Positions 533 through 63,870 of a stretch of DNA of 64,000 nucleotides are shown here, piece after piece. The notes beneath the pieces are model-generated. The model did no database searches. It was not told where the DNA came from and saw only the letters and a list, made by a program, of their open reading frames with translations. The stretch is taken from the NCBI GenBank assembly GCA_003615045.1, contig ML014143.1, positions 85,522 to 149,521 on the forward strand. Direction: 5' to 3'. The DNA comes from Caulochytrium protostelioides (taxonomy: Eukaryota; Chytridiomycota; Caulochytriomycetes; Caulochytriales; Caulochytriaceae). The position numbers and the translations under genes are program-made. Every line of letters begins with the position of its first letter. Within the stretch, counting starts at the first letter, position 1.

Positions 533-566
533 CCTCCTGTGTGCCCCCGGGGGAGCCTCACGGAGG
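533..566 (-). ncRNA. Candidate Fanzor 3'-end guide-RNA hairpin, copy A
   Basis: Just beyond the ORF stop there is an outer stem, CCTCC (533-537) with GGAGG (562-566), around a CCCCCGGGGG core (544-553). An equivalent structure follows all four Fanzor copies. In TnpB/Fanzor systems the guide-RNA scaffold overlaps this end of the element. Structure is seen; transcription is inferred. Confidence 0.4.
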
Positions 567-1060
567 CAGTTCGCATTTAATTTATCGCCGGATACGCTCG
601 CCGATCAAGGGCTGCAGTGGGGGTTGCCCGGGGTTGCGGCACAGCGCGTCGACCAGTATGCCGTGGAAACGCTGGGCGTACGCCTGCTACACCCGAGCCT
701 TTAAAACGGTGATCTCGCCCTGGCCATCGGGGGCAAACTTGGAGGCGCCATAGGCAACCATCACTTCAGCGACCACGAACCTCTTCTTCGTGACTGCCCC
801 GTATGCGACGCGGTTGAAGAACTGGGCCAACACGCGGTGCTTGCCACGGTACAGCCGCATGCAATGGCGTGCCCAGCGCGGCGGCGTGCCCAGCGTGCCC
901 AGCAGGAACTCGGCCCACAGCGGTTTGTACGTGGCGATCCACACCTTCTGTAGTTGGTGGTGCGCGGCGAGGGTGCCCTTGGAGCTCGCCGCCGCCAGCC
1001 GCTGCAGCGGCTCTTTTATATGGCGCGGCCATTTGGTTTTAAAGCTGGCCTCCACATCGT
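533..1060 (-). mobile_element. Degenerate Fanzor copy A (internally deleted, 5' truncated)
   Basis: Remnant of a Fanzor (eukaryotic TnpB-like RuvC nuclease) element read on the minus strand. An open frame at 687-1055 gives the middle of the protein, including LWAEFLLGTLG, MRLYRGKHRVLAQFFNRVAYG and a VVAEVMVAYGASKFA-like block, which is the segment between RuvC-I and RuvC-II in Fanzors. After a stop (KARV*) the same frame continues as QAYAQRFHGILVD and jumps to ALCRNPGQPPLQPLIGERIRR and a stop near 587. Copies C and D show that the VDEFRTT to RDLN segment, with the later catalytic acids, has been deleted at about 643-650. The RuvC-I half upstream of 1060 is missing. Sequence from 590 to about 950 is nearly identical to copy B. 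It cannot encode an active nuclease. The family call is firm from motifs and from copies B-D; the exact ends are uncertain. Confidence 0.8.
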
Positions 1061-2538
1061 TTCGAGATTTTTTTTTCTATTCGAGTTCTTTCGGGCAACC
1101 TGGTCAACGACGGCTGAAACTTGCCGGCCATATCCCCCAGCCCCACCTATCCCGCAAAGACTTTAGTTTAGCCGGACCTCTGCCATCAATTGCATGGCCG
1201 GTGTGAGACGCCGCGACGCTTACCTTCGACCCTTCTCCGGCTGGCTGCGCATCGGCTCGCCTGCGCGAGCGGGCCAAGCATGGCGGGCAAAGGGGTGGCC
1301 GCCGGAAACCAGCGCAGCGGACGAGCCGCCTTGACGAACCTCAGCCTATTCCCTGGCGCGTTCCGCGAAAAGAAAAAAACCAGAGACCGATGCAGTGCGA
1401 TGCTTGTCGAGCGCCGCATCCGCTCCGCTCCTTGGGGCCGGTCATCGCGGGATCGGCATGACTCGCTCCCGTCTGGCGCTTTCGAAGGGGGCAGCACGGA
1501 AAGGAAGGAAGGGATGGACCCGCGCCCGGTGCTTAGAGCCCGGCTGCGCCGTTGACTGCGCAACTCCCTTGACCCTCCGGGCGGGGGAGAGTCCGGCCGA
1601 GACCGCGCATGGACGGCCATTCCGTCCAAGCCGACCCAATTGGCTCCGATGATGCATTTCCGCGTGTGCGTCTTTCTCCCCCTGGGGGTGGGGACCCACC
1701 CGAGGCGAGTGTCGTCCCAGGGAGCAAGCGTTCAACCGGAAGACGCGCAGCGGGAAGCACGAAGCCGACCTAAGCGATGGTCGGCGGTCGAGGCCATGCT
1801 CAGGGACACGTCGTCGACATTCCATGTCGGACGACGTGGTGCTTCCGACACCGGTCGATTGCGCGCGTGTCGAAACGACACCGGGGATCCTTCTCACCTT
1901 CTCGCTTTCTCCATGGCTGACCCCCGCTGCTCGCCGAAGCTCGCGGGTGTGCAGAAGGCACCGAACGAAACTTCCGCCACCGGCCTTCCCTCGTTGCATG
2001 CTCACTTGCTTAGACAGGACGTAACGAAGGCGTTGCGCCATCCTTCCGTGTGTGCGCGGGCACGCGGTCGCGGCCCAGAAGGGGGAGGCCCGTGGGAGGC
2101 TCACAAGTCGCGTCTCCATGGTATCGATGATGCCGGGTCTCCGTGGTATCGATGATGTCGAGCTCACTCGACACTCGACACTGCAATAGGCGGCGGCTTG
2201 CGCGCTACAAGCGCGCCGTGCGGGGTTCCTGTCAAAAGGGAGCGTGAAAAATGAAAGAATCGCGGCCTCGTTGGACCGCCACGCCTGAGTTTTGACGTCG
2301 GAATAAGGCAGGCTTGAGTCCGTGTATCACGTTTATCATGAATGGATACATCCCCGTCATCGCATAGAGCGGCTAGGCTTCACCCCATCTTCACCCCATC
2401 AACTCGCCCGCCTCGAGCCCCCTGCGCCGGCGAATTGCCTGCCTGCTTTCCTGCCGGAGCTAGGCCCGCCCACCCACCGCGCGCCCTCGGCTTCACGGCT
2501 CCACGGCTCGCTCTGGTTTGAGGGTGATCGCGATCGCG
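1061..2538. promoter_or_regulatory. Intergenic region upstream of the MFS transporter gene
   Basis: No convincing gene. A 241-residue minus-strand open frame (1442-2167) is Arg/Ser-rich and has no recognisable domain. There is a short direct repeat around GGTATCGATGATG (2119-2157). The region probably holds the promoter and 5' UTR of the transporter. A Phe/Arg-poor, C/T-rich stretch precedes its start. Confidence 0.4.
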
Positions 2539-4740
2539 ATGGCCGTCGCACCACAACACTACCCCGCCTCAGAGACCGCGGCGTCCGCGCCGCCGCCACC
2601 GCGGGCCTCTTCAAGCTATGATACCCCGACCCTGCCGCCCGTCCCACCAGCGTCGCCGCCCGCAATGGCCGCGGATGCCAAGCAGGCCCCGGGGCTCGTC
2701 GGCACGAGGCCCTTGCCGACCGTCGATTCGGACATGTCCGATACGACGGTCGGGAACAGCATGAACGCCGCCGCCGCCGCCGCCACGGCGGCCGCCACGC
2801 AGGGCCCGAGGACAAAGCGCGCCGACTCGGACAGCACGCGTGGCAGCCGCTCGCGCCTTGGGGGCGGCCACATGGCGGCGCCGTTCGCGCCGTCGCCGAC
2901 GCGGCGTCACCGCCCCGGCCTGTGGTCGCCGTACCTGGTGCTCTCGGAGCCGGGCCACCAGCCGCGGTGGTACCAGCAGACGTGGTGGCAGGCGATCCTC
3001 ACGCACGATGTGCTGAGCCACCAGTACCGAGGCAAGGGCACGGCGGCGGAGCCCTACCAGGTGGAATTCCTGGGCTCGCACGACGTGGGCAACCCGCAAA
3101 TGTGGCGCACGGCGCGTAAGTGGCTCGTGGTGATGTGTGGCGCGGTCGCGACGCTCGCGATCGCGTTCGGCTCGAGCGCGTACACAGCCGCGATTCCGGG
3201 CATCATGGCGCACTTCGGCGTCTCCATTACGGCGGCGACCGCGGGCGTCGCCGTGTTCGTCCTCGGGTTTGCGATCGGCCCGCTCTTCTGGGCGCCGCTG
3301 GGGGAGCTGTTCGGCCGCCAGATCTGGTTCTGGACGACGTATGCGGCCGTCACGATCTTTGCGTGGGCCGCCGGCTACACGGACTCGTTCGCGGCGCTGA
3401 TCGTGCTGCGCTTCTTGGGTGGTGCGACCGGCGCGTCGGTGCTGAGCAACGCCGGCGGCGTAATCTCCGACGTCATGAACGAGAAGGAGCGCGGCCTCGG
3501 CCTCGCGTTCTTTTCGTTCGCGCCGTTCATGGGCCCTGTCTTGGGCCCCATCTGCGGCGGCTTCGAGGCCATGGCTGTCGGCTGGCGCTGGGTGCTGTAC
3601 ACGATCGCCATCTTTACAGGCGTCGTGCTCGTGCTCGGCGCGGTGGTCGTCCCCGAGACCTATGGTCCGGCCTTGCTTGCGAAGCGCGCCGCCGCGCTCT
3701 CGGACTATACGGGCCTCCACTTCGTCCGCGCATCGAAGCGCCCGCAGAAGTCCGCTGCTCAGCTCTTCAAGATTGCCCTCTCGCGCCCTTGGCAGCTGCT
3801 CTTCCTCGAGCCGATCACGCTCGCCGTGTGCCTGTACCAAGCCATCATCTACGGCACGCTGTACATGCTGTTCGGCGCGTTCCCCGTTGTCTACCGCCGC
3901 GGCCGCGGCTGGAACCAGGGAGTCTCGGGCCTTATGTTCGTGCCCGTCATGATCGGCTTGCTGCTCTGCCTCGGCTATGCCGTGGTTGAAAACCGCCGGT
4001 ACGCCCGCATCATCGATAAGCGCGGCGCCGCGGAGCCCGAAGACCGGCTGCCGATGTCCTGTGTCGCAGCGATCGCGCTGCCCGTGAGCATGTTCTGGTT
4101 CGCGTGGACCAACTCGGCCTCCTTGCCGTGGTGGCCCTCCGCGCTGGCCAACATCCTTTTCGGCTTTGGTCTGCTGGCCTCGTTCCTCGCGTCCTTCAAC
4201 TACCTCGTGGACATGTATGCGCTGTACGCGGCATCGGTGCTGGCCGCCGCGGCCGTCTCGCGGTCGGTCGTCGGCGCTGCGTTCCCGCTGTTTACGAACC
4301 AGATGTTTGATGCGCTGGGCATCCATTGGGCTTCCGCGCTGCCGGGTTTCCTCGCGCTCGCATGCGCCCCGTGCCCCTTCCTTTTCTACAAGTACGGCGC
4401 GGCTATCCGCATGCGCTGTAAGTATGCGCGCCAGGCCGCCCTTGAGATGGCCGAGATCAAGGCTGCGGCCGCCAGGGTCGCGGCGGAAGAGCGCCGCGAG
4501 TTGGAGGGCGGCGAAGGCGGCGAATTCTGCAATGGCGCCGGCGGCCATGACGACGGCCCCGACGACCACCTCAGCAAGCCCTGTCGCGGCGGCGACCCGA
4601 GCGATGCGGCCGAGCACGGCGCGGCGTGTACCGCCCACAATGCGTCCCAGCGGCCCATGACGACGATCGCCTCGGCGCCCTTGGCCTCGCCGACCGCTGC
4701 CGGGCCGCCCGTGGCCGCCACGACGCTACGACCCGCATAG
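2539..4740 (+). CDS. MFS transporter, DHA1 family (polyamine/drug:H+ antiporter type)
   Basis: A 733-residue plasma-membrane-type major facilitator. Residues 1-190 are a hydrophilic, disordered cytoplasmic N-terminus rich in Pro/Ala/Ser, which is usual in fungal Tpo/Flu1-like pumps. Twelve hydrophobic segments follow from about residue 193 to 620. Family signatures are the motif-A-like PLGELFGRQIW after TM2 and the antiporter motif C in TM5 (GPVLGPICGG), which mark DHA1 drug/polyamine:proton antiporters. RFLGGATGAS in TM4 and the PETYGP segment after TM6 are also typical. The C-terminal tail (about 620-733) is a charged helix followed by disordered sequence. The start used is the first ATG in frame; an upstream TTG in frame is unlikely. 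Substrate cannot be told from sequence: polyamines, azoles or organic anions are all possible. No intron is needed. The gene lies between Fanzor copy A and the MSH3 pseudogene. Confidence 0.88.
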   Translation: MAVAPQHYPASETAASAPPPPRASSSYDTPTLPPVPPASPPAMAADAKQAPGLVGTRPLPTVDSDMSDTTVGNSMNAAAAAATAAATQGPRTKRADSDSTRGSRSRLGGGHMAAPFAPSPTRRHRPGLWSPYLVLSEPGHQPRWYQQTWWQAILTHDVLSHQYRGKGTAAEPYQVEFLGSHDVGNPQMWRTARKWLVVMCGAVATLAIAFGSSAYTAAIPGIMAHFGVSITAATAGVAVFVLGFAIGPLFWAPLGELFGRQIWFWTTYAAVTIFAWAAGYTDSFAALIVLRFLGGATGASVLSNAGGVISDVMNEKERGLGLAFFSFAPFMGPVLGPICGGFEAMAVGWRWVLYTIAIFTGVVLVLGAVVVPETYGPALLAKRAAALSDYTGLHFVRASKRPQKSAAQLFKIALSRPWQLLFLEPITLAVCLYQAIIYGTLYMLFGAFPVVYRRGRGWNQGVSGLMFVPVMIGLLLCLGYAVVENRRYARIIDKRGAAEPEDRLPMSCVAAIALPVSMFWFAWTNSASLPWWPSALANILFGFGLLASFLASFNYLVDMYALYAASVLAAAAVSRSVVGAAFPLFTNQMFDALGIHWASALPGFLALACAPCPFLFYKYGAAIRMRCKYARQAALEMAEIKAAAARVAAEERRELEGGEGGEFCNGAGGHDDGPDDHLSKPCRGGDPSDAAEHGAACTAHNASQRPMTTIASAPLASPTAAGPPVAATTLRPA

Positions 4741-5049: not shown

Positions 5050-6710
5050 CATCGAAAGATAGCGACGGGCCAGGAACAAATCGCACACCTAGAAGTTCAT
5101 CTGCCTTTAAGATTAGCCTTTAAGATTAGCGACATTCCCAAGTTAAGGGGATTGCCTCTCATAGGCCAGCATACCGTGCTGGAATTACAACTCATTTGCC
5201 TCAACGAAAAGTATCCCGACTGCCTGTTCGTGTTCGGTAGAGATGGGCTACACATATCGACTGTTTGGGCAGGATGCGCGAGCGGCAGCACTCATTCTCC
5301 ATCGAGCACGGTATCTGGATCGCTCGAAGCATACATGTTCATTCCCCACGCATCGCTTCATGGTGCATGTTAAAAAGCTAGTCGATCATGGCTTTAAGGT
5401 TGCGCACAAACTGGAGCGGCCGCTCTGAAAGCAGCTGGCGCTAATAGAAGTGCGACTTTTGAGCGTAACGTTTCTGACATCTACACCAAAGGCACGATGG
5501 TGGTCGATGCCGATTCTTCAGTCAAATCCAAATTCACATCCAGCAACCTCATCATGTGAGTGTTAAAGGAAATTGTCGGCAACACGCGCGTGCAGTGCAG
5601 TTTCTGCTCCATACAAGTCACTACAGATAAAGGATCCTTTATCCAGTCACTACAGATGAATGGATCTACGACACGTATGACGATCATAGCGTTCGAAGCG
5701 GTACAGAGACCCGAATCCGACATTTGGAGCCTGCAGAAATTCTTTTTTCGACCCATGTTTTAAGCGCTTTCAAAGCGGTTTTGAATGAAGCCACGGAGCG
5801 TAGCGGAATGCTCCAGGAAGCCTTGGACTTCTTGACGGCTTCGCCAGCACGTGACTACGTTCGCCACCATATAGAAACGCAAATGGCAATCACAGAATTG
5901 CAGCTGGAGCATACCTCTGCAGGCGGAGAGCAGCCAAGCACAATCCCGCGCAGAGCTCCGGAAACGGCTTGATTCGCTGTAAGATCGAGCCGTCTGCAGC
6001 AGTTCAAATCGGCTTTTTTCACTCTTTCAATTTGCCAAACCTTTCGCTGGACGCGGGTACATGCTATTGACTGCTGACACGCCGAACAACCTGGAGCTAT
6101 TCCGCAGCGCCGATGGCGGACAGGAGTACGGAAGCTAGTTTTGGCTGCTCTGCCGCTACCGCACTGCCTTTGGACACCGCTTGCTGCGAAGGTATCTCAG
6201 CCAGCCGCTTTGGAGCTGACATCATTGCAACAGCGACAGGACATGACCAAAGGGCTTTCTCTGAAAAACAAATCTTCCGATATATTGGACGTTGGCTGTG
6301 CCTGACCTTGAGCAGTTTTGTATCGACTGTATACCGAATTCGCCCCTCCGAAGTCATCCGCATGCTGCAGATTTTGACTTCGCTGTCAAACCAGCGCCAG
6401 AGTTGGTTTGATCGGCCGACGGACGAGTTTGACAGTACCCTATTGCGCAACATCTTCATCGAGCTGGTCGATGCAGCCAGTGAGCTGGGGCTCCTCTTGA
6501 GCGAGGTCAACGTCACCGCTTGTGAGCAGAATGGCAAACTAAACATGTTTATCACACCGAGAGTGGCTACCTGGTTCCACGAGGTTGCCGAAGAACGCAA
6601 TAGTCTTCACCTCGCTCGGCTCGCTCGGCGTTCAAGGAGGCTATTCGCTTGCTGCTGAAGAGCCCCAACTTTCGAGCACCGCGTTGTGAGTAAGCAGGCG
6701 TGAGTAATAA
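5050..6710 (+). pseudogene. MSH3: MSH3 (MutS homologue) pseudogene, 5' and 3' truncated, multiply frameshifted
   Basis: The MutS-family order can be followed across frames. Mismatch-binding domain I: LELQLICLNEKYPDCLFVF (about 5180-5235), frameshift, then GYTYRLFGQDARAAALIL, a PTHR..VHVKKLVDHGFKVA block (to 5412) and AALKAAGANRSATFERN. Connector: SDIYTKGTMVVDADSSV (5476-5520), then an in-frame TGA after SSNLIM (5556). Core domain: LSLDAGT, ADTPNNLELFRSADGGQEYG and AFGHRLLRRYLSQPLW (6035-6210), also with frame changes. Lever/clamp: RPSEVIRMLQIL, LLRNIFIELVDAASELG, then LLLKSPNF (to about 6690). The IPTHR-VHV-KKLV and AALKAAG-NRSA signatures point to MSH3 rather than MSH6 or MSH2. The MutS ATPase domain and ABC signature are absent. 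A 13-base duplication (TCACTACAGAT) surrounds 5620-5660. It is a relic of nuclear mismatch repair that cannot give a working protein. Whether an intact copy exists elsewhere is not visible here. Confidence 0.85.
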
Positions 6711-6995
6711 AAACAGCAGCCAACCACACGGCAAAACCGTTCTGCCTGAGCTTGCTGTTGCATATGCTTTGCGAGCCAGCTGTGAACCATCCTTTGGAAG
6801 CATAGCAAATTTCGTGTTCAGTAACAGTTTTATATGGTACAGTTTCAAGGATATATGAATGGGTGAGTGGGTGAGTGGATGGATGGATCGCGAGATGAAG
6901 GGTCCCAGGCATGCATAGGAAAGTCACGATCTGCCGATCAAATGGCTGGTTGGCACCAGACTCGACAAGACATAAGCTGCTGCCTTATCACGTGT

Positions 6996-8357
6996 TTACG
7001 CGTCACAGGCGGACGCAGGGTAAAGACTAAGACTGATCATTTGTTCATTGTTCTCCTTTGTTTTGTTATCGTGCCAATTCATTTTGTAGATCATATGGGT
7101 GTCTTCGTATTTGGTGAAGTCCGGCACGTTATCTTTGCTTTTTTTAAATTCCAGTGTCTTGTGCCAGACGCTTATCTTTGTAGTGGGGGGATCGTCAGTA
7201 AAATACGATTCATCGAACTTACATGTCGGTCGTCCCGGGTTGAAAAAATCTTTTTTCTTTGCGGCCCATTCCTCGATAATCCCGTGGTCCTTGCTGATGA
7301 TCTTTCCGTTTCCAGTAAGGAACATGCCTTCCTCTGGGTCTGAGTAATTACCCGTACCCTTCTTGCATTTTACTGGATTATGCGCGAATACGATCTTGCC
7401 ATTATCTTTGGCACACGGCATTTCTGTCAACTCAAATATCATTTTCTCTGTCGCGCCGGCGTAGTTTTCGATATTTGCGTATAACGGGTACAACGTTTTC
7501 GGGCTCATCAAATGTTCATCCTTATCTTGCCAAACCAGTTTTCCGACAGCTCGCAACTGAAAGTACATACATGAAAGGTTAGCGTCATGGTATGGCTTTG
7601 TATCAATCTTCCACGATCCGGATTGAGAAGTGTTATATCTCCACAGATTTTGGTACAAAACGGCGGCGTAGGCAAATGCCTTTCTCGAGTCGGTTAATGC
7701 GTCTTGGCGCGCGACGCAAGTGTCCTTGTCCAACGCTTGTTTGAACTCTTTCTCAACGTCGGGGGAGTACAATGCAGCAACGCCTCGCAAAAGCAAATCA
7801 CTGAGCACATACCTAGCATCAGTCGGTTCAGTGGGGAAGACAAACACATTGCTGTTGTTTGGAGCAGGCTCGTCGCCTTTTCTGATAGCAACGAAAGGGA
7901 CACGCCGATGAACAATCGGGAGCTGACTGTAATTTCTGAAGAAGTCCGCAAGTTTGTCGTCAGTTATCTTCTCGCACACACAGACGATCGGAAAAACATC
8001 TTGGTCACCGCCTAGCGACGACAGAAATTTAGGTTTGAAGGCTTCCACAGGGTCTCCGTCACACGGTGTGTGGCACTGTTTTTTCAGCTCTTCGGCAGAC
8101 TCTTTTGGCGCGGGATCTCGATCCCAAATACCATACGTTTTATCGGGCCTGAACTTTGTCACTTGCCTCCAGTGATCATCAGTGTTCCTCTGGTGATCCG
8201 CTTGAAACAAAGCCCACTTCCCGGTTGCTGCGTCACGACGGTCCAGCTGGTGGTGCGATGCGGTCAAGCTCGAAGTCGAGATAGGTCCCGCCGCCACGGG
8301 TCCTGCCAGCGCGAGAACCAGAGTGGCTAGAGGCCCCGCCCATTCCGACCACCGCAT
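6996..8357 (-). CDS. Secreted cysteine-containing protein of unknown function
   Basis: A 453-residue protein not recognised as a known family. The start chosen is the ATG giving a clear signal peptide (MRWSEWAGPLATLVLALAGPVAAG), although the frame stays open upstream through a hexamer repeat that would code for an implausible (Ile-Phe)n tract. A dibasic site (LDRRD) just after the signal suggests Kex2-type processing. The mature part has about ten cysteines, including CHTPC and VCVC pairs, with aromatic-rich charged segments and several Asn-X-Ser/Thr sequons, as in an extracellular folded domain. Codon third positions are much more A/T-rich than in the core genes, so it is compositionally distinct. 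Two Fanzor remnants flank the wider region. It could be a wall protein, an enzyme or a host/prey-directed effector; there is no motif to choose. Confidence 0.75.
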   Translation of the reverse strand: MRWSEWAGPLATLVLALAGPVAAGPISTSSLTASHHQLDRRDAATGKWALFQADHQRNTDDHWRQVTKFRPDKTYGIWDRDPAPKESAEELKKQCHTPCDGDPVEAFKPKFLSSLGGDQDVFPIVCVCEKITDDKLADFFRNYSQLPIVHRRVPFVAIRKGDEPAPNNSNVFVFPTEPTDARYVLSDLLLRGVAALYSPDVEKEFKQALDKDTCVARQDALTDSRKAFAYAAVLYQNLWRYNTSQSGSWKIDTKPYHDANLSCMYFQLRAVGKLVWQDKDEHLMSPKTLYPLYANIENYAGATEKMIFELTEMPCAKDNGKIVFAHNPVKCKKGTGNYSDPEEGMFLTGNGKIISKDHGIIEEWAAKKKDFFNPGRPTCKFDESYFTDDPPTTKISVWHKTLEFKKSKDNVPDFTKYEDTHMIYKMNWHDNKTKENNEQMISLSLYPASACDA

Positions 8358-8394
8358 GACGCAAAAACAAGGTCGGGATGAGGTGACGGTGACG

Positions 8395-8513
8395 GTGACG
8401 ATGAAGATGAAGCTGAAGATGAAGATGAAGATGAAGATGAAGCTGAAGATGAAGATGAAGATGAAGATGAAGATGAAGATGAAGATGAAGATGAAGATGA
8501 AGATGAAGGTCCC
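8395..8513 (-). repeat. ATGAAG/CTTCAT hexamer microsatellite in the 5' leader of the secreted-protein gene
   Basis: About 18 near-perfect ATGAAG units on the plus strand with occasional AAGCTG variants, ending about 40 bases upstream of the secreted protein's ATG. On the transcribed (minus) strand it is a pyrimidine-rich CTTCAT run, so it may lie in the 5' UTR or core promoter, where length variation could alter expression. Confidence 0.85.
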
Positions 8514-8710: not shown

Positions 8711-8720
8711 CATATATATA
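8711..8720 (-). promoter_or_regulatory. Possible TATA element of the secreted-protein gene
   Basis: CATATATATA in an otherwise GC-rich stretch, about 355 bases upstream of the chosen ATG and upstream of the hexamer repeat. Position and composition are compatible with a TATA box, but nothing confirms use. Confidence 0.3.
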
Positions 8721-8971
8721 GGGCTGGTCTTCTACGATATCCATCTCCGCGAATATTGATGACCCGCCGCATGGTGGGCGACGTCGAAGTTTCAGCGAGG
8801 TTTCAACCATCCATGGAGATAAAATTTAACCCCAAAAGGCGCGTGCCCGCCATTGGGATCACTGTGACCATCAACATAGGCCACGCTACTCCATTGTTCT
8901 CAAACCAACACACTGTCGGTATAATGGCTTAAAAAATATGGGTTCTCCCTCTAGATGACCTAGCACGAACG

Positions 8972-9011
8972 TCATATCCTCCCTGGTGCTCCCAGGGGTC
9001 CCCGCATATGA
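8972..9011 (-). ncRNA. Candidate Fanzor 3'-end guide-RNA hairpin, copy B
   Basis: Structure after the ORF stop. The outer stem is TCATAT (8972-8977) with ATATGA (9006-9011), enclosing a GGTGCTCCCAGGGGTCCCC core. The outer pairs differ completely from copies A and D, but pairing is kept. Transcription is not shown. Confidence 0.35.
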
Positions 9012-9935
9012 TTTATCGCCGGATACGCTCGCCGATCAAGGGCTGCAGTGGGGGTTGCCCGGGGTTGCGGCACAGCGCGTCGACCAGTATGCCGTGGAAA
9101 CGCTGGGCGTACGCCTGCTACACCCGAGCCTTTAAAACGGTGATCTCGCCCTGGCCACCGGGGGCAAACTTGGAGGCGCCATAGGCAACCATCACTTCAG
9201 CGACCACGAACCTCTTCTTCGTGACTGCCCCGTATGCGACGCGGTTGAAGAACTGGGCCAACACGCGGTGCTTGCCACGGTACAGCCGCATGCAATGGCG
9301 TGCCCAGCGCGGTGGCGTGCCCAGCGTGCCCAGCAGGAACTCGGCCCACAGCGGTTTGTACGTGGCGAGCCACACCTCCAGTAATTGGTGGTGCGCGGCA
9401 AGCGCTGTGCTCGCGGTGCTCACCTCCGACGGCTGCTGCAGCTGATCCTTGTGATGTCGCTGCCACGTCTCTGACTGCTTTTAAGCGGCCTTCCTGCTGG
9501 CTTCCACTTAGTACTGCTTTCGGATCAGATTCCAGCTGACGACCTGGCCGCTGTGCCTCACCATGGCCATTAAAATGTTGGTGCGGCCCAGGTCTTTCCC
9601 GAGAATGCAGTACTGATCCCGGCGACCGGCCGAGGGTTTCTTGGTCTGATTGGGGCTGCCTGCCGGGGTGCTCGGTCTGATCCAGGCTCTCTCCCGGGGG
9701 GTGCTCGGCCTGATGGGGGCTGCCTACCAAGGGGGTTCTTGGCCCCGGGGGTAGCCGTGACGATCGGCACGGCGTCGGACACCTTCCTCTGGAGCCGGAA
9801 GTGGACGCACACGCTGGTCCCATCGTTGTCGATGCTGTCAGTGAACGTGTGGCCCTTGCCTTCCAGGTTGCGGAACGCCAGGGTGTCTGTCCACTGCTCC
9901 GCGGTCAAGACCGGTCAGTCGCATGGCGTGCGCGT
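8972..9935 (-). mobile_element. Degenerate Fanzor copy B (longest N-terminal remnant, same internal deletion as A)
   Basis: Minus-strand Fanzor relic. From 9908 downward an open frame gives the N-terminal region with FTDSIDNDGTSVCVHFRL, matching the 'TDG-SV-V' strand of Fanzors, then a Pro/Arg-rich linker built from short GC-rich repeats (9630-9740). After a frameshift, RuvC-I is clear: GKDLGRTNILMAMV (9555-9600), with the catalytic-type Asp in DLGR. The frame continues VVSWNLIRKQY*VEASRKAA*KQSETWQR, where two TAA codons replace the TAT and CAA seen in copy D. The rest, to KARV*, is nearly identical to copy A. It shares A's deletion junction (GILVD to ALCRNPGQ, about 9072-9080), so RuvC-II and RuvC-III acids are missing. 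It is non-functional as a nuclease. Confidence 0.85.
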
Positions 9936-57300: not shown

Positions 57301-58789
57301 CGCCCATGGCCCCGCGCGCCGCAGGCTTGTCCAGCTCCTTGCTCAGCGCTGCGGCACGCGACCCTCCATACCAATCGCTCTCGCTGAGCTGCTCGCCGAC
57401 GGACCGGCAGCCCTCTATGTCGACGCCGCGCTGGCCACCGCCGTCGACAACGATGCGCTGAAGGGCGAGCTGCTCGAAGGCGCGCTGGACAACGACGCGC
57501 AGTGCTATGAGGCTCTTGTCGCGTACCTGGAGCTCGCGTATGTGCGTGATACGGCGACAGCCGCGTCGCGATGCGAAGCGCGGATCGTGGCTGCCGCCAA
57601 CGCCGCGGGCGCTCATGCCTTGCTCCGTGGCCTCCAAGCGGCCGCAGCATCTCCGTCCCTGGCGACAGAGGCGCCCTTCCAGAACGTGTCTGGCCCCGTC
57701 GGGCTGCTTTACGCCTGCGGCGTCTGGCAACGTCATGCGCAACAGCTGGCGGGCGCGCTGGCGCTTTTGCATCTGTGTCGCACGGATGTGACATGGGGCC
57801 AGCGAGCCGTGCAGCTCATGGTGGATATCCTGATAAATCCGAGCGGCATTCTGATCGGTGCGACGACGTTGGGGTCGGACCGCGCGGCGGCAATGAAGCG
57901 GCTCGAGTCGATTCAAAAGCACCTCCGACTGGTGCCGACGCCTAGCAGCGGAAGCAGCATCAACGCAGGCGTCGACACCCCAGCGGACACTGATGCCGAT
58001 CCCAGCGAGGGCGCCATCCATGGCGCTAACCAGGCGAGTGAGGACCCCATGCTTGGCATCCTCTCCGCAGAAGGGCTCCTCCAGCCTTGGATCGAGGCAC
58101 GCCCGCTCTGGGTCGACGTGGCCGAATGGCAAGCCCTCATGTTGTCGGGAGTAGCCGCTGACATCCAGCGTGTGAATAAAGCGTGTTCAGCGCGGCTCTC
58201 AGCGCTGATGTCAGAAAAAGACACGGGCGACCTTGCCCCCGGCCTCCCGCTGGAGTCTCCCTCGCGCCGCACAGGTCAAATCGCGCCGATCCTCTTGACC
58301 CTGGCCCAATCCTGCGCCCTCTTGCACCAAGGGGCAAAAGCGCGGAATCATCTCAAGCAGCTTGTCCAGATGCCATGGCACCCGAGTATCCGCAGTGAGT
58401 ATGAAGCGGCGCTGCTGCTCCTGATTGATTTGCACATCCAGGGCAACCAACTCGATGCAGCTCTCAAGCTCGTACAGACTTGTTTGAAGCGCAATGCATC
58501 ATGTCTGCCAGCACTAGAGTACCGCGGCTTGATTGCAGAAAAACAGGGTCGGCTGGCCGATGCCTCGGCGTGCTATGACGCCGTCTGGCGGGCGCTGCCC
58601 GATGCCGCCAAGTCGTCTGTTCTCGGGTTTCGGTTGGCATCCAGTCATGCCAAAACTGGTCATTATACTGACGCCATCGACGTGTGCCACGTCATCGCCC
58701 GACTCGTTGGCCGACGCACACCACAGGTCGATGACCTCCTGCAGAGGGCCCGCGCATCGCTACGTTTGGGAAGTGGTGGTTACATGTAG
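54320..58789 (+). CDS. IFT139: IFT139 / TTC21B, TPR subunit of intraflagellar transport complex A
   Basis: A 1489-residue protein built of tetratricopeptide-like helical repeats from end to end (human TTC21B is about 1316). The C-terminal third aligns clearly by eye with TTC21B: VTWGQRAVQLMVDILINPSG, ARNHLKQLVQMPWHPS, then AALLLLIDLHIQGNQLDAALKLVQ, CLKRNASCLPALEYRGLIAEKQG, and the final YTDAIDVCHVIARLVGR with LLQRARASLRL. An acidic Ser/Asp insert (about 770-800) is lineage-specific. IFT139 is a peripheral IFT-A subunit working with dynein-2 in retrograde transport inside flagella. The start ATG lies in CCACCATGG and the next residues FITLATCVFWLETGQY fit the first TPR; an in-frame ATG 69 bases upstream adds only an Ala run. 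No intron is needed. Transcribed divergently from the methyltransferase gene. Confidence 0.9.
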   Translation: MADANFITLATCVFWLETGQYGRLVRTCDDLLARKANDALASVLKGLALVVQAQWTPAQQLLAPLAARKDYALLASHLLFGIAARAPPAAAAAAGAPAVAEAHTAYEIQKGQTPASALIAWILDAIAHRYLDQDDAAARHALDEKVLGHPDAEAAAKLPFALLAQSLLQFWGLTDTAVSGPPSASALLAKLSAADTLQALNEIRAAFPRWLPAGIVKMKHAWRDGPADAVADAVRHVRALDPTDLDAALLGIMAGMMAPTAHAAAGAGAGLGHAEETADDPSALAAGTAAALPVAAQFDQLVQRLLAGERHSPAYVCTMLTQLHEWGYLPESAAAAEPVERWLAALVDADDGTGVGVDASTTGAAALLRAHLALRYDPAAALARYEALYAASLSAEAGKGVARALLALGETVTAQETLLLLQSQADDHDVELALLALLVAVAQRQAADARDAAQRLTDLVASFAIQHLPTAASAWLRQSGVAVAVAENLFSLPPRVAAVWRGIAAGLVRVFPGDPWARLLDAAWWDPSDPIPDVMAFPASDRAGPLLHAWCLAVAAHAMAAGAAGVTGADAVAAADAALRFALADDFALRTHARWGVLRAQVALAQGDTAACDEWLATVAPHAVGSEPLATRLRYLGLSRLLPDVPSADRIDWLRVAAKLALTQGRPDAAQARLQELEDVVRRSLFAHDYDFWAGEVLLTAGPAGAGSGTVAAAVARLEAIPPDNRFYFIGRRMLARYYASHRDRPRALAMLTALYRQDQQQARGRRRRAGAGDSSDDDADSVDADVDAQSDDDWSPRGRTIVQTRPSPLAGAIVDELMRMHLWNEALAIVNQELDHAAPTELARWQQLYGRLLARTHQFHAAAKFYEELEAINVMPETPVERAMLLDALRFWRQMRRGDRAQALLDNPMVMQLMEAGPSRDIELGLLQERVLLDADQGRAHEGLVRGQRWLSLAQRRPAAYRATIHYTLGEFHGWLGRDDEAERAFRASLALHAHGPARRRLVQLLAQRCGTRPSIPIALAELLADGPAALYVDAALATAVDNDALKGELLEGALDNDAQCYEALVAYLELAYVRDTATAASRCEARIVAAANAAGAHALLRGLQAAAASPSLATEAPFQNVSGPVGLLYACGVWQRHAQQLAGALALLHLCRTDVTWGQRAVQLMVDILINPSGILIGATTLGSDRAAAMKRLESIQKHLRLVPTPSSGSSINAGVDTPADTDADPSEGAIHGANQASEDPMLGILSAEGLLQPWIEARPLWVDVAEWQALMLSGVAADIQRVNKACSARLSALMSEKDTGDLAPGLPLESPSRRTGQIAPILLTLAQSCALLHQGAKARNHLKQLVQMPWHPSIRSEYEAALLLLIDLHIQGNQLDAALKLVQTCLKRNASCLPALEYRGLIAEKQGRLADASACYDAVWRALPDAAKSSVLGFRLASSHAKTGHYTDAIDVCHVIARLVGRRTPQVDDLLQRARASLRLGSGGYM

Positions 58790-58819
58790 AGCGACATATA
58801 TTTTTTGAACGCTTCTCGT

Positions 58820-58842
58820 GTATATAGGCCCAGCCTATATAC
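58820..58842. repeat. Perfect 9-bp hairpin downstream of IFT139
   Basis: GTATATAGG (58820-58828) and CCTATATAC (58834-58842) with loop CCCAG. Lies between the IFT139 stop and the 3' end of Fanzor copy C; could be a 3'-end signal or a footprint of insertion. Confidence 0.75.
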
Positions 58843-58862
58843 TTACCTCACGCTGCACACCG

Positions 58863-58903
58863 TGCCCTCCTTGATGCACCCCAGGGGCACCCCCACCGAG
58901 GCA
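58863..58903 (-). ncRNA. Candidate Fanzor 3'-end guide-RNA hairpin, copy C
   Basis: Outer stem TGCCcTC (58863-58869) with GAGGCA (58898-58903), one bulged base, around a GATGCACCCCAGGGGCACC core, 15 bases after the ORF stop on the minus strand. Same placement as in A, B and D. Confidence 0.4.
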
Positions 58904-59290
58904 GTAGCGCACTCGGTTCATTGTCGGATGAGCTTGCCGACCACGGGCCGCAGCGGGTCTTGCCCGGGGTTGCGGCACAACGCCTCCGGTCTGACGGGTA
59001 AGGCCAGGCAGCGTCGGATGTTCAATGCGGCATTGAGATCGCAGGTCACCAGCTTGCTGTTTGTGGCTTCACATCACGGCAACCTTCGGACCACAGTCCC
59101 CTGGCGCCGGTGTTGCCCGGGTATCAGGACGACATTCGTCTTAGCATACACCACGTTCCTGCGGAACGGGTTGACTGTCCTCGGCGCGGTCGGGGAGGGG
59201 GGCGCGGCTGGGATGCACGAGATTTCGGCACGACCATCGTGTCCCAGATTTGCACCTTGGTCATACCATGCCTGCAGCAAGCACTCACGA
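58863..59290 (-). mobile_element. Degenerate Fanzor copy C (3'-terminal fragment with RuvC-III)
   Basis: Minus-strand Fanzor C-terminal remnant. From 59290 downward: TKVQIWDTMVVPKSRASQP, matching copy D's TKVKLRDPTQVPISPASRA; then after frame changes NPFRRNVVYAKTNVVLIPGQHRRQGTVVRRL. Finally, in an unbroken frame, comes KLVTCDLNAALNIRRCLALP, with LCRNPGQDPLRPVVGKLIRQ and a stop at 58918-58920. CDLNAALNI is the RuvC-III block, where most relatives have RDLN or RDVN. The zinc-binding Cys pairs usual in TnpB/Fanzor are not apparent. Nothing of RuvC-I or RuvC-II remains. Confidence 0.82.
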
Positions 59291-59697
59291 TGGGACTCGC
59301 CGCATAGCGCAGCGGACAAGCTGGCTGGTGGTGGACGAATTGGGTGACAACTCCAGAGCGAATAGTAAATATAAATATAAAGTATAATATAAAATAGTAC
59401 GCACCGTAAGTTTAGTGCAGAAGTTGAGTGGAGAATGGACATGGTCATAGCCTGCTGCCCTCCATGCCGACTTTCGCCCGCTCGGGTGTAATGACCGCGG
59501 CCCCGCTACCACCGTCACTCGTCAACGGCCCGCCTCGCCACTCCTCCTGCACATTCCCGTCCATCACCGAAGTCTACTACGCAGTAGACTCTCCTCTCCC
59601 GACACCCCACCCTGTCTCTCAGTCCCTGCATCTCTCCATCTTTCTGTCTGCTTGCGATTTCGCTCTCTCCTTCTCTGCGGCAACTGCAGCATTCGTC
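59291..59697. promoter_or_regulatory. AT-rich promoter region of the secreted helical-protein gene
   Basis: A TAAATATAAATATAAAGTATAATATAAAATAG tract of over 30 bases (59368-59400), exceptional for this window, followed by a C/T-rich leader (59560-59697). Fits a promoter and 5' UTR; the frame stays open upstream of the chosen ATG but encodes unremarkable sequence. Confidence 0.45.
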
Positions 59698-60903
59698 ATG
59701 TTCACGATGTTGTCCCTCGGACGATCGCTCGCCATCATGGCCGCCATGATTGCGAGCATTGCGATGTGGACATCGGCATCGCCGTTTCCGACAGACCCAC
59801 AAGCTATCGACGAGTGGCATCAAAAGGTAGCCTCCAGCGCCTTCACAAGCCAGATCGCCGAGCAAGCACTCGCCGAAGTCCTCCCAAAGGATCGTGACAG
59901 CTCCAGCAATACAGCCAAGCGCAAAGCCGAAGATGCTGCGGACCAATCGTCCGATCGTCGCCCACCCCCAACCCCAACCAAGACGTTTTACGATCCGGTC
60001 CGCGCCATGGTTGTAAACTCATTTGAACCAAAAGATCGTGAAATGATCGACGTATCGTCTAGTTCAGGCGCATCTATGCCGGGGCCAATCGGGGTCGTGA
60101 CAGAGGAAGGTAGACATGGATCGCGTGACAATGGCCCGGCTTTTACGGATCTTCTTGCATTAGTGAATGGTCACCGCCTGAGATATCAAGAGGCGATAGC
60201 CAAAGCGAAGTCTATTCGTGCTGTACTCGAGCCGTACAGCCTATCGGTCGAAGAACTTCACGGTTATCTGAATGAGTTGACCAACACAGGCCGTAGGAGC
60301 AGGACGACTGCTTTAACTCAGGTCTTGCCATATTTCCAACTGACATATCGGCACAAGTCGCATTATCCCCCGATTGAAACGAGTGAAGGATTGCCCAAGA
60401 AGAACAAGCAGAGGAAAGAAGGGAAGGCGAGTCTGAAAAACCCGACGCGCCTTCCAGTAAGGCTCATCCCTAAATCCGATCTGTTCGCCCGACCTTTAAA
60501 GGAATACACCGATGCACTGGCTACCAAGAAGCAGCTTGAAGCGTCCAAAGCTCATCGGGAAGCCGTAAAAAGTTCTCAGGAAACAAACGCGAATTTTGAA
60601 AAACAGCTCGTGACGCTGAACCAGAGTATCGATAGGTCGGCGAGGGCCATTGAACATCTCGTGGATGAGGCCACCATCGCTTACAAAGGGATTGAACGCG
60701 TTTATCTGAATCACGAGGTAGGAACCAGCGTGTTGATCGCGCACACCAAGTTCAAAAAGTGGATTGCTGCATCGTTGAAGGCCGCTGCAAGACGTGAGTT
60801 CATGCTTGACCAATGTTTAGCGAAAACAACCTACATTTCCTCGGTTCTTTCGTCGCTGGAGCCCCCAAACAAGGGCAAAGTTCAAGGAGCGCTGGTCAAA
60901 TAA
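59698..60903 (+). CDS. Secreted helical protein of unknown family
   Basis: A 401-residue protein. The ATG chosen gives a signal peptide (MFTMLSLGRSLAIMAAMIASIAMW, cleavage near residue 29); the open frame runs 270 bases further upstream but without such a signal. The first 150 residues are polar and partly disordered (KRKAEDAADQSSDRRPPPTPTK). The rest is helical and Lys/Glu-rich (LLALVNGHRLRYQEAIAKAK, LVTLNQSIDRSARAIEHLVDEA). Few cysteines. Codon third positions are mixed, much less GC-rich than in the core genes. No domain is recognised. After the stop the same frame continues for 60 codons before a shift, and a related-looking frame follows, so this may be the first half of a once-longer gene or a tandem pair. 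A host- or prey-directed secreted protein is possible but unproven. Confidence 0.65.
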   Translation: MFTMLSLGRSLAIMAAMIASIAMWTSASPFPTDPQAIDEWHQKVASSAFTSQIAEQALAEVLPKDRDSSSNTAKRKAEDAADQSSDRRPPPTPTKTFYDPVRAMVVNSFEPKDREMIDVSSSSGASMPGPIGVVTEEGRHGSRDNGPAFTDLLALVNGHRLRYQEAIAKAKSIRAVLEPYSLSVEELHGYLNELTNTGRRSRTTALTQVLPYFQLTYRHKSHYPPIETSEGLPKKNKQRKEGKASLKNPTRLPVRLIPKSDLFARPLKEYTDALATKKQLEASKAHREAVKSSQETNANFEKQLVTLNQSIDRSARAIEHLVDEATIAYKGIERVYLNHEVGTSVLIAHTKFKKWIAASLKAAARREFMLDQCLAKTTYISSVLSSLEPPNKGKVQGALVK

Positions 60904-62049
60904 GACGAACCGCCCAGTAGACTGGATGACTCGAGGCCGCTTTTGGAAAAGTCCCAAGAGGGTGAAAGGCTTACTGGAACGGATCCGAGGGGATCGGAAA
61001 TCACAATGAGACCGAAAGAACCGATAGAATTAAATACTTACCCGCTACTTTTGAAGAAACCACCACAACGTTTCTTGATAAGGTCGGCAACTTGTTCAAA
61101 GACGACAATCCGATGCAGAGTGGTGAACAAGCTCCCATGAAGGAAACACGTTCTCACGAGGCATGGCCAGAAGTTTGGCACATGAAATCAGTGGGTAATG
61201 CTGAAAATCGGTGGCTTCCTTACCTTGTGAGTTACCAAAACGCGGTCGACTTCACCAAAGCCAAAAAAGAGCTCCTCTCCAATCACATCTCCAAAATAAA
61301 AGCGCTGGACGTAACAGCGCTAACACTGGACGTAACAAGAAAGGTTATGTCTGCTCAGACGAGTCTTGCGGCGGATACCAAATTCTTGCCTAACTTACAT
61401 GATGTTCCCTCTGCGATGCTCCTCCACCAAAGCCATGTTCGGTCACATTTTACGCAGACACAGACACAGCAGCAGCAAGAGGTCGTCAGATACATCAATG
61501 CACTCAAAGAGGCTTTCAAAATTATGGATACCCACCTGAATTGGAAGGCCAAGCGTGTGAAGGAATATGATAGGTCTTATGTGACGTTCAAACCCCTCGT
61601 GTACGAGCTTTTTTATGCCGTAGGAACTCGCAGATATCGAGGCAGTCCTAGAGTTCTGGTTGAATCTGCGAGAGTTATTACTCCATCTGGCCGACACCAA
61701 AATCGATGATGATAAGATTACTCGCGGCACCGAAGACATTCTGGCCAAGAAAACATCACAAGATCCGCTTGCTAAAGCTGCTGAAAAATGGTTGAAGGAT
61801 ACACTTGAGCGAAGAAACCAGATTCTAAACGACCTCAATCACGAGCAGGTGTACGGATGGTACTTACAGAATCCGATGCAGCTTTGGGAGAAGCTTCCGG
61901 CGATAATCCCGAGTCGCAGTGCCTTAAAAACTGAGCAAGTCCAATCCACAATGGATACCATGGATACCATCAGTCATAATATGGATGGTCATAAACTTCT
62001 TCCTCCAGAGATTAAAGACAACCTTCACTACTTCAAAGAGCTTTTCTAG
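60904..62049 (+). pseudogene. Frameshifted second helical gene or 3' half of the upstream gene
   Basis: Open protein-like sequence continues past the TAA at 60901-60903: first in the same frame (DEPPSRLDDSRPLLEKSQEGE), then in another frame (HNETERTDRIKYLPATFEE, through 61092-61620 with NRWLPYLVSYQNAVDFTKAKK and QQEVVRYINALKEAFKIMDT). Near 61625 a single-base shift moves it to the frame LADIEAVLEFWLNLRELLLH, with KWLKDTLERRNQILNDLNHE and a stop at 62047-62049. Composition and helical heptads resemble the preceding gene. No signal peptide of its own is seen. Introns could account for some breaks, but no clear GT...AG pair was found at the 61625 shift, so decay is favoured. Confidence 0.55.
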
Positions 62050-62884
62050 CCTATATAAAATTTTAATACTACTGGCAGTCTCTCATTCACATCGCCTGCG
62101 CGGTTCTGACCAAAATGGCTGATGCCGAGGGCGTCAGCGTCACTGGCCACGCGACGCGAGGCGGGCCTTCTGCGACCGCCGGATAGTACGTTTGTTGTAA
62201 CGAGGAAGCGAGAAGCCACGTTGATGGCCGAGCTGCTGGGAGGGCAGCTGATATCGGGGGCAGTCGACAACGCGGCAGCTTTGTCACGGCCTGTCGCGGG
62301 ACTGCCAACCCAGGATGACACACATGGGGAGAGTGCCACGGAAGCCAGGGAGGCACGCGTCGACGGGACCATCGACCCAACCGACACCCGCGAAGGGGAC
62401 GAGCCCACGCTAGGGCCCGTGCTACCATCACCCAAGGCACAAGGGGCCCTGCGCGTCGCGGCGCTTTTGTTACGTGCCCGACAGCTCCGACAGGCCAGCA
62501 TCAAGCAACTTAGGCGGGAATACCATATCCCGGCCCGTCGATCTACCCATCGAGGACAGCGATCCCCGACAACAACTCCAATTTAGCCGAAGCTCCCTTT
62601 TCGAGGGGGTAGGGCTGCCTGCAACGGCAAAACGTATCATGTACCGCATGAGGCGGATAGGGTAATGGTTTTCGTGGGTGAGGGGCCGCCGGAACGGGTC
62701 CGACGTGCCCCAAGTCCCACACTACCCGGGAGCTATATGCTGACCCGGGTGTCTCCCCGCCGGGCCACCAAGTCCGCGGAAGGCGCGATCAGCGCTGGAA
62801 GAGTAATAAGATGCGTTCGGCTGCGCCGCATCCCAAATCGGCGGGCAATGATTTTCTCCTTGGCACCTTATTTTAATACATTGA
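62050..62884. other. Region between helical-protein relic and Fanzor copy D, with one unrecognised frame
   Basis: A plus-strand frame from an ATG at 62224 to 62586 gives 120 residues beginning MAELLGGQLISGAVDNAAAL, acidic in the middle and ending in a basic helix (LLLRARQLRQASIKQLRREY). It precedes copy D and might be a remnant of its N-terminal region or of another gene; no motif decides. 62590-62884 shows no supported gene. Confidence 0.35.
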
Positions 62885-63870
62885 TACCTCCCAAAAAATC
62901 TTCTTTATGGCCATGGTGGGGCCCGAAGGCCAGGTCGTCAGCTGGAAGTTGAGTCGAAGGCAATACTATGTGGAAGCCGGCATGAAAGCCGCCCAAAAGC
63001 AGTCAGAGACGTGGCAGCGCGGTCTCAAGGAGCCGCTGCAGCGGCTGTCCGGGGTGAGCTCCAAGGGCACAGCGCTCGACGTGCACCACCGCTTCCTGGA
63101 AGCGGTATGTGACTCGCCACGTACGAGCCGTGGTGGGCCGAGTTCCTGAAGCTGCGCTGGGCGCGCCAGCGCCTGGGGCTGTATAGCGACAAGCTGTATA
63201 GCGCGTGTTTGCCAAGTTCATGAACCGCGTCGCCAAGGTGGCGGCCACGGTGATGGCGCCCGTCGTCGCTGAAGTGGTGATCGCCTATGGCGCCTCCCAG
63301 TTTGCCCCCGGCGGCGAGAGCGAGGTCGCCCTTCCAACGGTATCGCGCGTACCTCGCGTGTGCCCAGCCGTTTAGCACCGTCCTGGTTGACGAGTTCCGG
63401 ACGACCCAGGTGCATGCCGAGATGAACGACCTCCTGACCAAGGTGAAACTCCGGGACCCGACACAGGTGCCGATCTCTCCCGCGTCCCGGGCGGGTGCCC
63501 CTCACTGACCGAACCGACGCGGGCCACCCCGGTTTGCGAGACCCGGGTGGACGCCCAGACGCTTGTAGTCCTGAAACCCGGTCCACACCGGCGCCAGGGG
63601 ACCACAGTCCGAAGATTGCTGTGGTATCAAGCCACCCACGGCAATGAAGCCACCCACACACCCACGGCAAGTTGGTGAACCGCGATCTCAATACCGCGTT
63701 GAACCTCCGATGCTGTCTGGCCTTACCGGACAGACCGATAGCGTTGTGCCGCAATCGAGAGCAAACCAGGTTGCAGTCCAAGGTCGGCAAGGTCATTCGA
63801 CACTGAACCGAATGCGCGTCTGCTTCGGGGGCGGACCCCTCGGGGGCACCGCCGAAGGTTGGTGTGCGCA
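62885..63870 (+). mobile_element. Degenerate Fanzor copy D (RuvC-II and RuvC-III retained, frameshifted)
   Basis: Plus-strand Fanzor relic, the only copy keeping the segment deleted in A and B. It enters just after RuvC-I (MAMVGPEGQVVSWKLSRRQYY at 62907, matching copy B's MAMV...GQVVSWNLIRKQY), then KQSETWQRGLKEPLQRLSGVSS. A frameshift near 63105 and further shifts and stops follow through the YxxWWAEFLKLRWARQRLGLYSDK region. From 63287 a frame gives QRYRAYLACAQPFSTVLVDEFRTTQVHAEM, whose VDEFRTT block is a Fanzor hallmark and probable second acidic site. RuvC-III is in another frame: KLVNRDLNTALNLRCCLALP, then LCRNREQTRLQSKVGKVIRH and a stop at 63804-63806. At least four disruptions rule out function. 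Confidence 0.85.
63823..63857 (+). ncRNA. Candidate Fanzor 3'-end guide-RNA hairpin, copy D
   Basis: Nested stems 17 bases after the ORF stop: CTTCG (63823-63827) with CGAAG (63853-63857), GCGG (63831-63834) with CCGC (63849-63852), and an ACCCC/GGGG core. The outer CTTCG/CGAAG replaces CCTCC/GGAGG of copy A by paired changes. Confidence 0.45.

What the first reader, a model, noticed from the sequence alone, without database searches (positions are those of the whole stretch)
533..63870. Four decayed Fanzor (RNA-guided nuclease) copies flank a conserved gene block
Copies A (533-1060), B (8972-9935), C (58863-59290) and D (62885-63870) share RuvC-type motifs: GKDLGRTN in B, VDEFRTT in D, RDLNTALN in D and CDLNAALN in C. 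Between them they cover nearly the whole C-terminal two thirds of a Fanzor. All four lie in the two flanks, none between 10 and 58 kb. Fanzors are eukaryotic TnpB relatives, known from chytrids among other groups. The sequence shows past expansion and decay; active copies elsewhere in the genome are an inference.
Basis: partly seen in the sequence, partly recalled or inferred. Interest (0 to 1): 0.85.

Follow-up and report, generated by a model that had tools for sequence, protein, structure and literature searches.

The report
Dead zinc-fingerless Fanzor family in chytrid
The four fragments are real, dead remains of a large mobile-element family that carried a Fanzor (RNA-guided DNA cutter) in the chytrid Caulochytrium, and this branch of Fanzors lacks the zinc finger once described as strictly conserved.

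Summary
Confirmed and extended. A-D are decayed copies of one Fanzor1-type family in Caulochytrium protostelioides. Single-sequence Pfam and PDB searches found nothing useful. A profile built mainly from metagenomic relatives hits only Fanzor1 in the PDB: PpFz1 4.8e-14, SpuFz1 3.2e-11, GtFz1 0.15. The AlphaFold model of a relative has seven Fanzor1 chains as its top Foldseek hits. DPG, the alternative-position Glu and the D-E-D triad are present; no CxxC zinc-finger pair occurs in 40 of 40 scorable relatives, 44 examined. The family has at least 134 loci. No match spans a whole relative. Per-copy decay is near neutral. Copies tend to keep the 3' end and lose the 5' end or middle. The 3' UTR holds a hairpin with mixed covariation support, a candidate omega RNA, and ends in CTCAATATA. 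Bao & Jurka 2013 described the same 3' overabundance for Chlamydomonas Fanzor1 elements. How copies are made is open: no target-site duplications were detected, and no omega RNA was shown.

The parts
488..1060 (-). Copy A: Fanzor1 remnant, 5'-truncated, lacks the RuvC II-III segment (model 1200-1616 joined to 2030-2193)
   Evidence: nhmmer with family profile; blastn to B and D
8946..9924 (-). Copy B: Fanzor1 remnant with degenerate RuvC-I (GKDLGRTN), same internal deletion as A (model 740-1616 joined to 2030-2177)
58806..59266 (-). Copy C: Fanzor1 3' part with RuvC-III (CDLNAALN) and 3' UTR (model 1653-2203)
62894..63908 (+). Copy D: Fanzor1 3' half with VDEFRTT and RDLNTALN, reaching the family 3' end (model 1129-2198)
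62076..62141 (+). 5' UTR and first codons of the same element type, probably belonging to D
   Evidence: blastn to L014, L017, L040, L064, L065, L067, L068, L074 (79-96%)
62147..62898 (+). 3' part of a non-LTR-like (RVT_1) retroelement between the two parts of D
   Evidence: 81% identical to L076 2293-3049; L076 frame matches RVT_1, 1.7e-22; 'non-LTR' is my reading of the sequence, not a tool result
63804..63878 (+). D: 3' UTR hairpin, candidate omega RNA scaffold
   Evidence: alignment A4 and pair counts
58843..58920 (-). C: same 3' UTR hairpin region
511..584 (-). A: same 3' UTR hairpin region
63890..63909 (+). D: element 3' terminus (ACCGCGTTTAACTCAGTATA, 2 mismatches to the family terminus)
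   Evidence: pattern search, (C33:149411-149430)
572..871 (-). A half of a tract nearly identical to 9003-9302 in B (99%)
   Evidence: the repeat finder D5; A-B alignment

Best explanation
A-D are dead members of a Fanzor1-type mobile family of Caulochytrium protostelioides. The ancestral element carried a 5' UTR with a TATA-like box, one gene for a RuvC nuclease of roughly 620-630 aa by comparison with relatives (D-E-D triad, DPG and alternative-Glu fingerprint, no C4 zinc finger), and a short 3' UTR with a hairpin ending at CTCAATATA. Shown here: homology, fold of a relative, residues, copy number, decay, a common 3' end with frequent 5' truncation and internal deletion. Partly supported: selection on the hairpin. 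Inferred: the hairpin is the omega RNA scaffold that guided the nuclease; the element had no replication enzyme of its own and was copied in trans by a process that begins at its 3' end and often stops early.
For: Profile A2 (24 metagenomic relatives plus P0001 and P0009) hits only Fanzor1 chains in the PDB up to E 10. AF2 of relative P0002 (pLDDT 88.6) has as top 7 Foldseek hits SpuFz1/PpFz1/GtFz1 (E 4.8e-21 to 4.0e-15), then Cas12s. TNB domain PF07282 weakly matched in relative P0008 (5e-4, under the cut-off). Catalytic columns conserved. Genome identity: P0009 = C. protostelioides CXG81DRAFT_23488 on a contig of 260,677 bases, the length of C6. At least 134 loci on 103 contigs. Ends: of 47 testable copies each, 37 reach model 2120 or beyond and 12 start within 150 of the model's 5' end; random breakage fitted to the 3' side predicts 62% reaching 5' against 12 of 47 seen. 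9 of 10 copies fetched by their 3' end begin within about 730 nt of it, at nine different points. 3 of 4 copies fetched by their N-terminus still reach the 3' end. Hairpin: 25 both-side-changed cells against 13.4 +/- 2.7 in shuffles, 0/500.
Against: Single-sequence Pfam and PDB searches gave nothing; PF07282 has no match in this genome. The C4 zinc finger, 'strictly conserved' in the 2013 definition, is absent. Hairpin: RNAalifold predicted no structure; the two measures least inflated by relatedness were not above shuffles (pairs with change on both sides 5, reached in 204/500; further pair types 15, reached in 214/500); slide +2 gave 24 changed cells; six of 47 rows with large indels were left out. 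No RNA data; no Rfam family in three loci. No target-site duplications. Loci were found by queries nearer the 3' end, the 5' region is more diverged, and eight of the twelve 5'-complete copies went into the profile that scored them, so the end asymmetry is partly ascertainment; with full-length P0002 I count 19 loci matched in its first 100 residues against 44 past residue 520, the latter part being better conserved.
Confidence: 0.8

Rival explanations
1. Copied through RNA: a non-LTR reverse transcriptase acting in trans made the copies by target-primed reverse transcription, which explains 5' truncation and could explain short tandem repeats at the 3' end.
For: Graded 5' truncation with one 3' end. 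CTCAATATA tandemly doubled at 14 places at <=2 mismatches, 7 exact, reversed control 0; 9 of 10 of these fetched are Fanzor 3' UTRs. RVT_1 matches exist in this genome (19, 15 over the cut-off; two read).
Against: Most doubled tails share one tail type (GCCTTGA before the repeat), so doubling there is probably inherited; only L078 and L084 double the other tail type. No target-site duplication signal in 24 of 61 copies tested (permutation p 0.341; several boundaries doubtful). The two reverse-transcriptase loci read show no match to the Fanzor profile. Several copies keep both ends with internal deletions.
Confidence: 0.34
2. Rolling-circle (Helitron2-like) mobilisation with one-ended copies, as proposed for Chlamydomonas CRe-1, 2, 3.
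For: Same signature printed for CRe-1, 2, 3: 5' truncation, internal deletions, 3' ends nearly always intact (section 8 of PMC3627910 read). Hairpin near the 3' end.
Against: Helitron_like_N (PF14214) gives 0 matches in this genome, although no control genome rang, so absence is not shown. No Helitron was available for comparing ends. The 3' end does not carry CTRR (recalled Helitron feature).
Confidence: 0.28
3. Cut-and-paste or IS605-like DNA transposon whose 5' parts were merely lost or diverged.
For: Some copies keep a common 5' UTR and the 3' end with internal deletions. A composite bounded by two inverted 3' ends is shared by L013 and L016 with unrelated flanks.
Against: The reversed type-I 3' terminus was not found in the held loci. 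Truncation at many points is not expected. By the profile, 11 of 11 testable 5'-complete copies keep the 3' end, but only 11 of 37 3'-complete copies keep the 5' side; an independent blastn shows the 3' UTR in 9 of those 11, in L027 in part, in L052 not.
Confidence: 0.2

Closest known systems
Fanzor1 of Spizellomyces punctatus (SpuFz1) and Parasitella parasitica (PpFz1)
   Same: Fold of a relative matches (TM 0.68/0.71 to SpuFz1); profile homology; RuvC motifs with DPG in PpFz1; Glu just before the zinc-finger position; fungal host.
   Different: SpuFz1 and PpFz1 show two Cys pairs in the alignments; this clade shows no CxxC. SpuFz1 elements are flanked by inverted repeats (passages of PMC10432273); none found here.
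CRe-1, 2, 3 Fanzor1 families of Chlamydomonas reinhardtii (Bao & Jurka 2013)
   Same: Multi-copy Fanzor1 elements, 5'-truncated with internal deletions, 3' ends nearly always kept.
   Different: CRe families share ends with Helitrons, CRe-1 is about 98% identical to its consensus, and many copies have 7-19 bp duplications; here no Helitron match, older copies, no duplications detected.
CMe-1A of Cyanidioschyzon merolae
   Same: About 150 old copies, no inverted repeats, unclassified (section 12 of PMC3627910 read).
   Different: Some CMe-1A copies still encode intact Fanzor1 (section 15 read); none found here.

Membership tests
Fanzor1 | RuvC D-E-D triad | tested here: met
   Columns in C.p. 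copies D 33/37, E 33/43, D 32/39; D381, E546, D590 invariant in the 23 relatives of A3
Fanzor1 | DPG in RuvC I (Yoon 2023 fingerprint) | tested here: met
   43 of 44 relatives contain DPG; C.p. columns D33/37 P30/37 G34/39; definition in section 23 of PMC10711439
Fanzor1 | Alternative catalytic Glu six residues before the zinc-finger position | tested here: met
   Glu, six residues, then the former first Cys site; that site is still Cys in 5 of 40 relatives and His in 37 of 41 C.p. copies
Fanzor1 | C4 zinc finger between RuvC II and III (Bao & Jurka 2013 motif) | tested here: not met
   0 CxxC in 40 of 40 scorable relatives, 44 examined; C.p. copies: former first Cys site His in 37 of 41 and never Cys. 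Control: Cys pairs visible in SpuFz1 and PpFz1
Fanzor1 | Fanzor fold | tested here: met
   Foldseek of the P0002 model, top 7 all Fanzor1; tested on a relative, not on the broken copies
Fanzor1 | Carried by a mobile element | tested here: met
   At least 134 dispersed loci with common ends
Fanzor1 | Omega RNA from the element's right end | tested here: inconclusive
   Hairpin in the 3' UTR with some compensatory changes but mixed statistics, RNAalifold empty, no RNA data
Fanzor1 | Position in a Fanzor/TnpB tree | not tested
non-LTR retrotransposition in trans | 5' truncation with common 3' end | tested here: met
   with the ascertainment limits stated
non-LTR retrotransposition in trans | Target-site duplications | tested here: not met
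   24 of 61 copies scorable, permutation p 0.341; weak test on old copies
Helitron2-type element | Rep/helicase source element with shared ends | tested here: inconclusive
   PF14214 0 matches, no control rang; shared ends not compared

The most novel reading that the evidence does not exclude
A Fanzor lineage that spread through RNA: its transcript, with the guide-RNA hairpin at its 3' end, was reverse-transcribed in trans into the genome, and the RNA-guided cut made by Fanzor itself may have supplied the primed target, joining RNA-guided cleavage and reverse transcription in nature; and a whole Fanzor clade lives without the zinc finger.
Probability: 0.14. Interest if true: 0.88.

Novelty: new variant of a known kind. 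Interest (0 to 1): 0.5.

Why it matters
Fanzors are being developed as genome editors. A clade with seemingly complete members of about 570-700 aa that keeps the catalytic fingerprint and, in the one model made, the fold, but lacks the C4 zinc finger suggests that the finger is dispensable; searches that require CxxC pairs (as the regular expression in PMC10711439 does, passage) would miss it. A second case of 3'-anchored, 5'-truncated Fanzor copies, in a fungus, makes the open question of how Fanzor elements copy themselves testable: RNA-mediated or rolling-circle.

Tried and rejected
Rejected: an unrelated transposase or cellular family (no Pfam match to A, B or P0001; profile and fold hits are Fanzors). 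Rejected: A and B as proof that a nuclease-dead copy moved in trans. Their near-identity is confined to about 360 nt and falls to 40-75% outside, which fits gene conversion, so the shared deletion is no proof. Rejected: terminal inverted repeats, as the reversed type-I 3' terminus was not found in the held loci. Rejected: target-site duplications as support for any mechanism. Led nowhere: viral-contig scan (600 pattern matches, none confirmed); Rfam on three loci; phage collection as a probe of the gene block; Pfam of frames in the low-GC stretches (6996-8822, 59428-60900, 60966-61706: none). Earlier thought dropped: L025 as an intact gene; its frame is open for 526 codons but shares nothing with the family upstream of RuvC I.

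Changed on re-reading my calls: the hairpin claim was weakened because two of the five measures do not exceed shuffles; RNA-mediated copying was lowered (0.38 to 0.34, novel case 0.15 to 0.14) because most doubled 3' tails share one tail type and so are probably inherited; overall confidence went from 0.82 to 0.80; the rolling-circle rival went from 0.27 to 0.28.

Rows dropped before counts: one search used 84 of the 103 rows, 53 of 53, 19 of 20, 40 of 40; one search used 41 of the 47 hairpin rows, leaving out six with large indels; one search gave boundaries for 24 of 61 copies, some doubtful (L014, L008, L086); one search scored 40 of 44 relatives (P0037, P0042, P0044, P0046 not matched by my motif expressions; P0009 left out beforehand); 11 duplicate loci were removed, and L025 itself. 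For some searches I picked 10 of the 40 places and 4 of the N-terminal matches. The 19 against 44 loci is my own count from its table.
Full report
Observation. The repeat tools show that A, B, C and D are copies of one sequence. A profile built from eight longer copies of the genome finds exactly these four places in the 64 kb at E<=1e-3: A 488-1060 (-), B 8946-9924 (-), C 58806-59266 (-), D 62894-63908 (+). D also has a 66-base piece of 5' UTR and first codons at about 62076-62141 and a piece of a reverse-transcriptase element (62147-62898) before its main part. D ends near the end of contig C33.

Organism. The protein search returned P0009, named by its source Caulochytrium protostelioides CXG81DRAFT_23488, on a contig of 260,677 bases; contig C6 of this genome has that length. 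The genome has 20.9 Mb in 337 contigs. The species was sequenced from single cells (passages of PMC6784888).

What the protein is. Single sequences gave no Pfam match and no meaningful PDB match. Relatives in metagenomes, 514-702 aa, made the difference: a profile of 24 of them with P0001 and P0009 matches three PDB sequences up to E 10, all Fanzor1 (PpFz1 4.8e-14, SpuFz1 3.2e-11, GtFz1 0.15). AlphaFold2 of P0002 on 23 sequences has mean pLDDT 88.6 and Foldseek ranks seven Fanzor1 chains first (SpuFz1 E 4.8e-21, TM 0.68/0.71), then Cas12 enzymes. The C.p. copies keep the catalytic columns (D 33/37, E 33/43, D 32/39; 47 loci in the table). By the DPG plus alternative-Glu fingerprint (section 23 of PMC10711439 read) they are Fanzors.

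The missing zinc finger. Bao and Jurka (passages) call the C4 zinc finger between RuvC II and III strictly conserved; Yoon et al. say many TnpBs and Fanzors have it. In the 40 of 44 relatives that my motif expressions could score there is no CxxC in that stretch; five of the 40 (P0008, P0011, P0017, P0018, P0045) still show a Cys at the former first site, and many keep the single Cys of 'LLWC', so the finger looks eroded. In the C.p. copies the first site is His in 37 of 41 and never Cys, and the residue after 'LLW' is Cys in 8 of 34. SpuFz1 and PpFz1 show Cys pairs in the alignments, which serves as control. I therefore call the clade Fanzor1-like by homology, fold and fingerprint, and a variant by the 2013 definition. 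In the searches made (listings) and the papers seen in part I saw no report of Fanzors in Caulochytrium or of a zinc-fingerless Fanzor clade; the library is partial, and Jiang et al. 2023 (recalled) was not seen.

Copy number and decay. The union of listed matches of four searches makes at least 134 loci on 103 contigs. With P0002 as query no match covers the whole protein; the longest covers residues 242-620 of 629 with one stop. Divergence from the majority base is 13.8, 12.4 and 15.8% at codon positions 1, 2, 3, close to neutral, so most change came after the copies died.

Anatomy of the element. Coverage plots show one sharp 3' end and a graded 5' side. Complete 5' ends begin near CTGCACAGGCGC and several show a TATATAAA box before the start codon; the N-terminus in C197 reads MADAES...PPKRRRPDRAEK, which looks like a nuclear localisation signal (recalled idea, not tested). 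The 3' UTR holds a hairpin: 82.7% of cells paired against 77.3% in shuffles and at most 51.3% in slid registers, 25 cells changed on both sides against 13.4 +/- 2.7, for example CCTCGG/CCGAGG, CTTCGG/CCGAAG and CCTCCG/CGGAGG. Against this, the number of pairs with such a change (5) and of further pair types (15) is no higher than in shuffles (204/500 and 214/500 reach them), one slid register has 24 changed cells, and RNAalifold returned no structure. The element stops at CTCAATATA: ACCGCGTTAAACTCAATATA occurs 58 times at up to 3 mismatches, reversed control 0. The 9-mer is tandemly doubled at 14 places at up to 2 mismatches (7 exact), control 0; nine of the ten of these fetched are Fanzor 3' UTRs, mostly of one tail type, and L078 and L084 double the other type.

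How it copied itself. Of 48 unique loci, 47 are testable at each end: 37 reach model 2120 or beyond, 10 begin within 60 and 12 within 150 of the model start. By the profile, 11 of 11 testable copies complete at the 5' side keep the 3' end, and 11 of 37 3'-complete copies keep the 5' side (Fisher 3e-5). Limits: loci were chosen by queries nearer the 3' end, eight of the twelve 5'-complete copies were profile members, and an independent blastn shows the 3' UTR in nine of the eleven, in L027 in part, in L052 not. Ten copies fetched by their 3' end: nine begin at nine different points (model 1477-1940), with no further match in the 370-850 nt fetched upstream; one runs out of the fetched stretch. 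Four fetched by their N-terminus: three still reach the 3' end, with internal deletions in at least two; one does not within 1.4 kb. This is the pattern printed for Chlamydomonas CRe-1, 2, 3, which the authors ascribed to Helitron2 (section 8 read). Here Helitron_like_N has no match, without a working control, while reverse-transcriptase elements exist. The doubled terminal 9-mer mildly favours reverse transcription; the lack of duplications and the two reverse-transcriptase loci read, which show no match to the Fanzor profile, do not. I put RNA-mediated copying first among the mechanisms, at about 0.34, rolling-circle copying close behind.

Verdict. What is new is the size of the family, the fungus, the zinc-fingerless clade and the 3'-anchored copying pattern in it.

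Noticed in passing
window 572-871 and 9003-9302: Copies A and B are 97-100% identical over about 360 nt, including a shared premature stop and deletion, but only about 40-75% outside: this fits ectopic gene conversion over 8.4 kb.
   Followed up: partly
L013:1329-2721 and L016:1332-2664: Two loci share a composite of an inverted Fanzor 3' end fused to Fanzor from model 840, 77% identical, with no match in the flanks: a unit bounded by two inverted 3' ends seems to have moved.
   Followed up: partly
G000 contig C6 (P0009, L016): The public gene model CXG81DRAFT_23488 seems to join a Fanzor fragment to an unrelated reading frame.
   Followed up: no
L025 1064-2641, L007, L011: C.p. Fanzor copies have a length-variable Pro/Arg/Ala/Thr-rich insert between RuvC II and III that the metagenomic relatives lack.
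   Followed up: no
window 6001-8000 and 60001-62000: Two lower-GC stretches (0.49 and 0.48; 0.57-0.78 elsewhere) near the Fanzor copies hold long frames without Pfam matches (6996-8822 -, 59428-60900 +).
   Followed up: partly
window 2464-4737 (+), 10019-12334 (-), 54176-58786 (+): Genes beside the copies: a major-facilitator transporter, a PX/Vps5 sorting-nexin-like protein and a TTC21-like protein.
   Followed up: no
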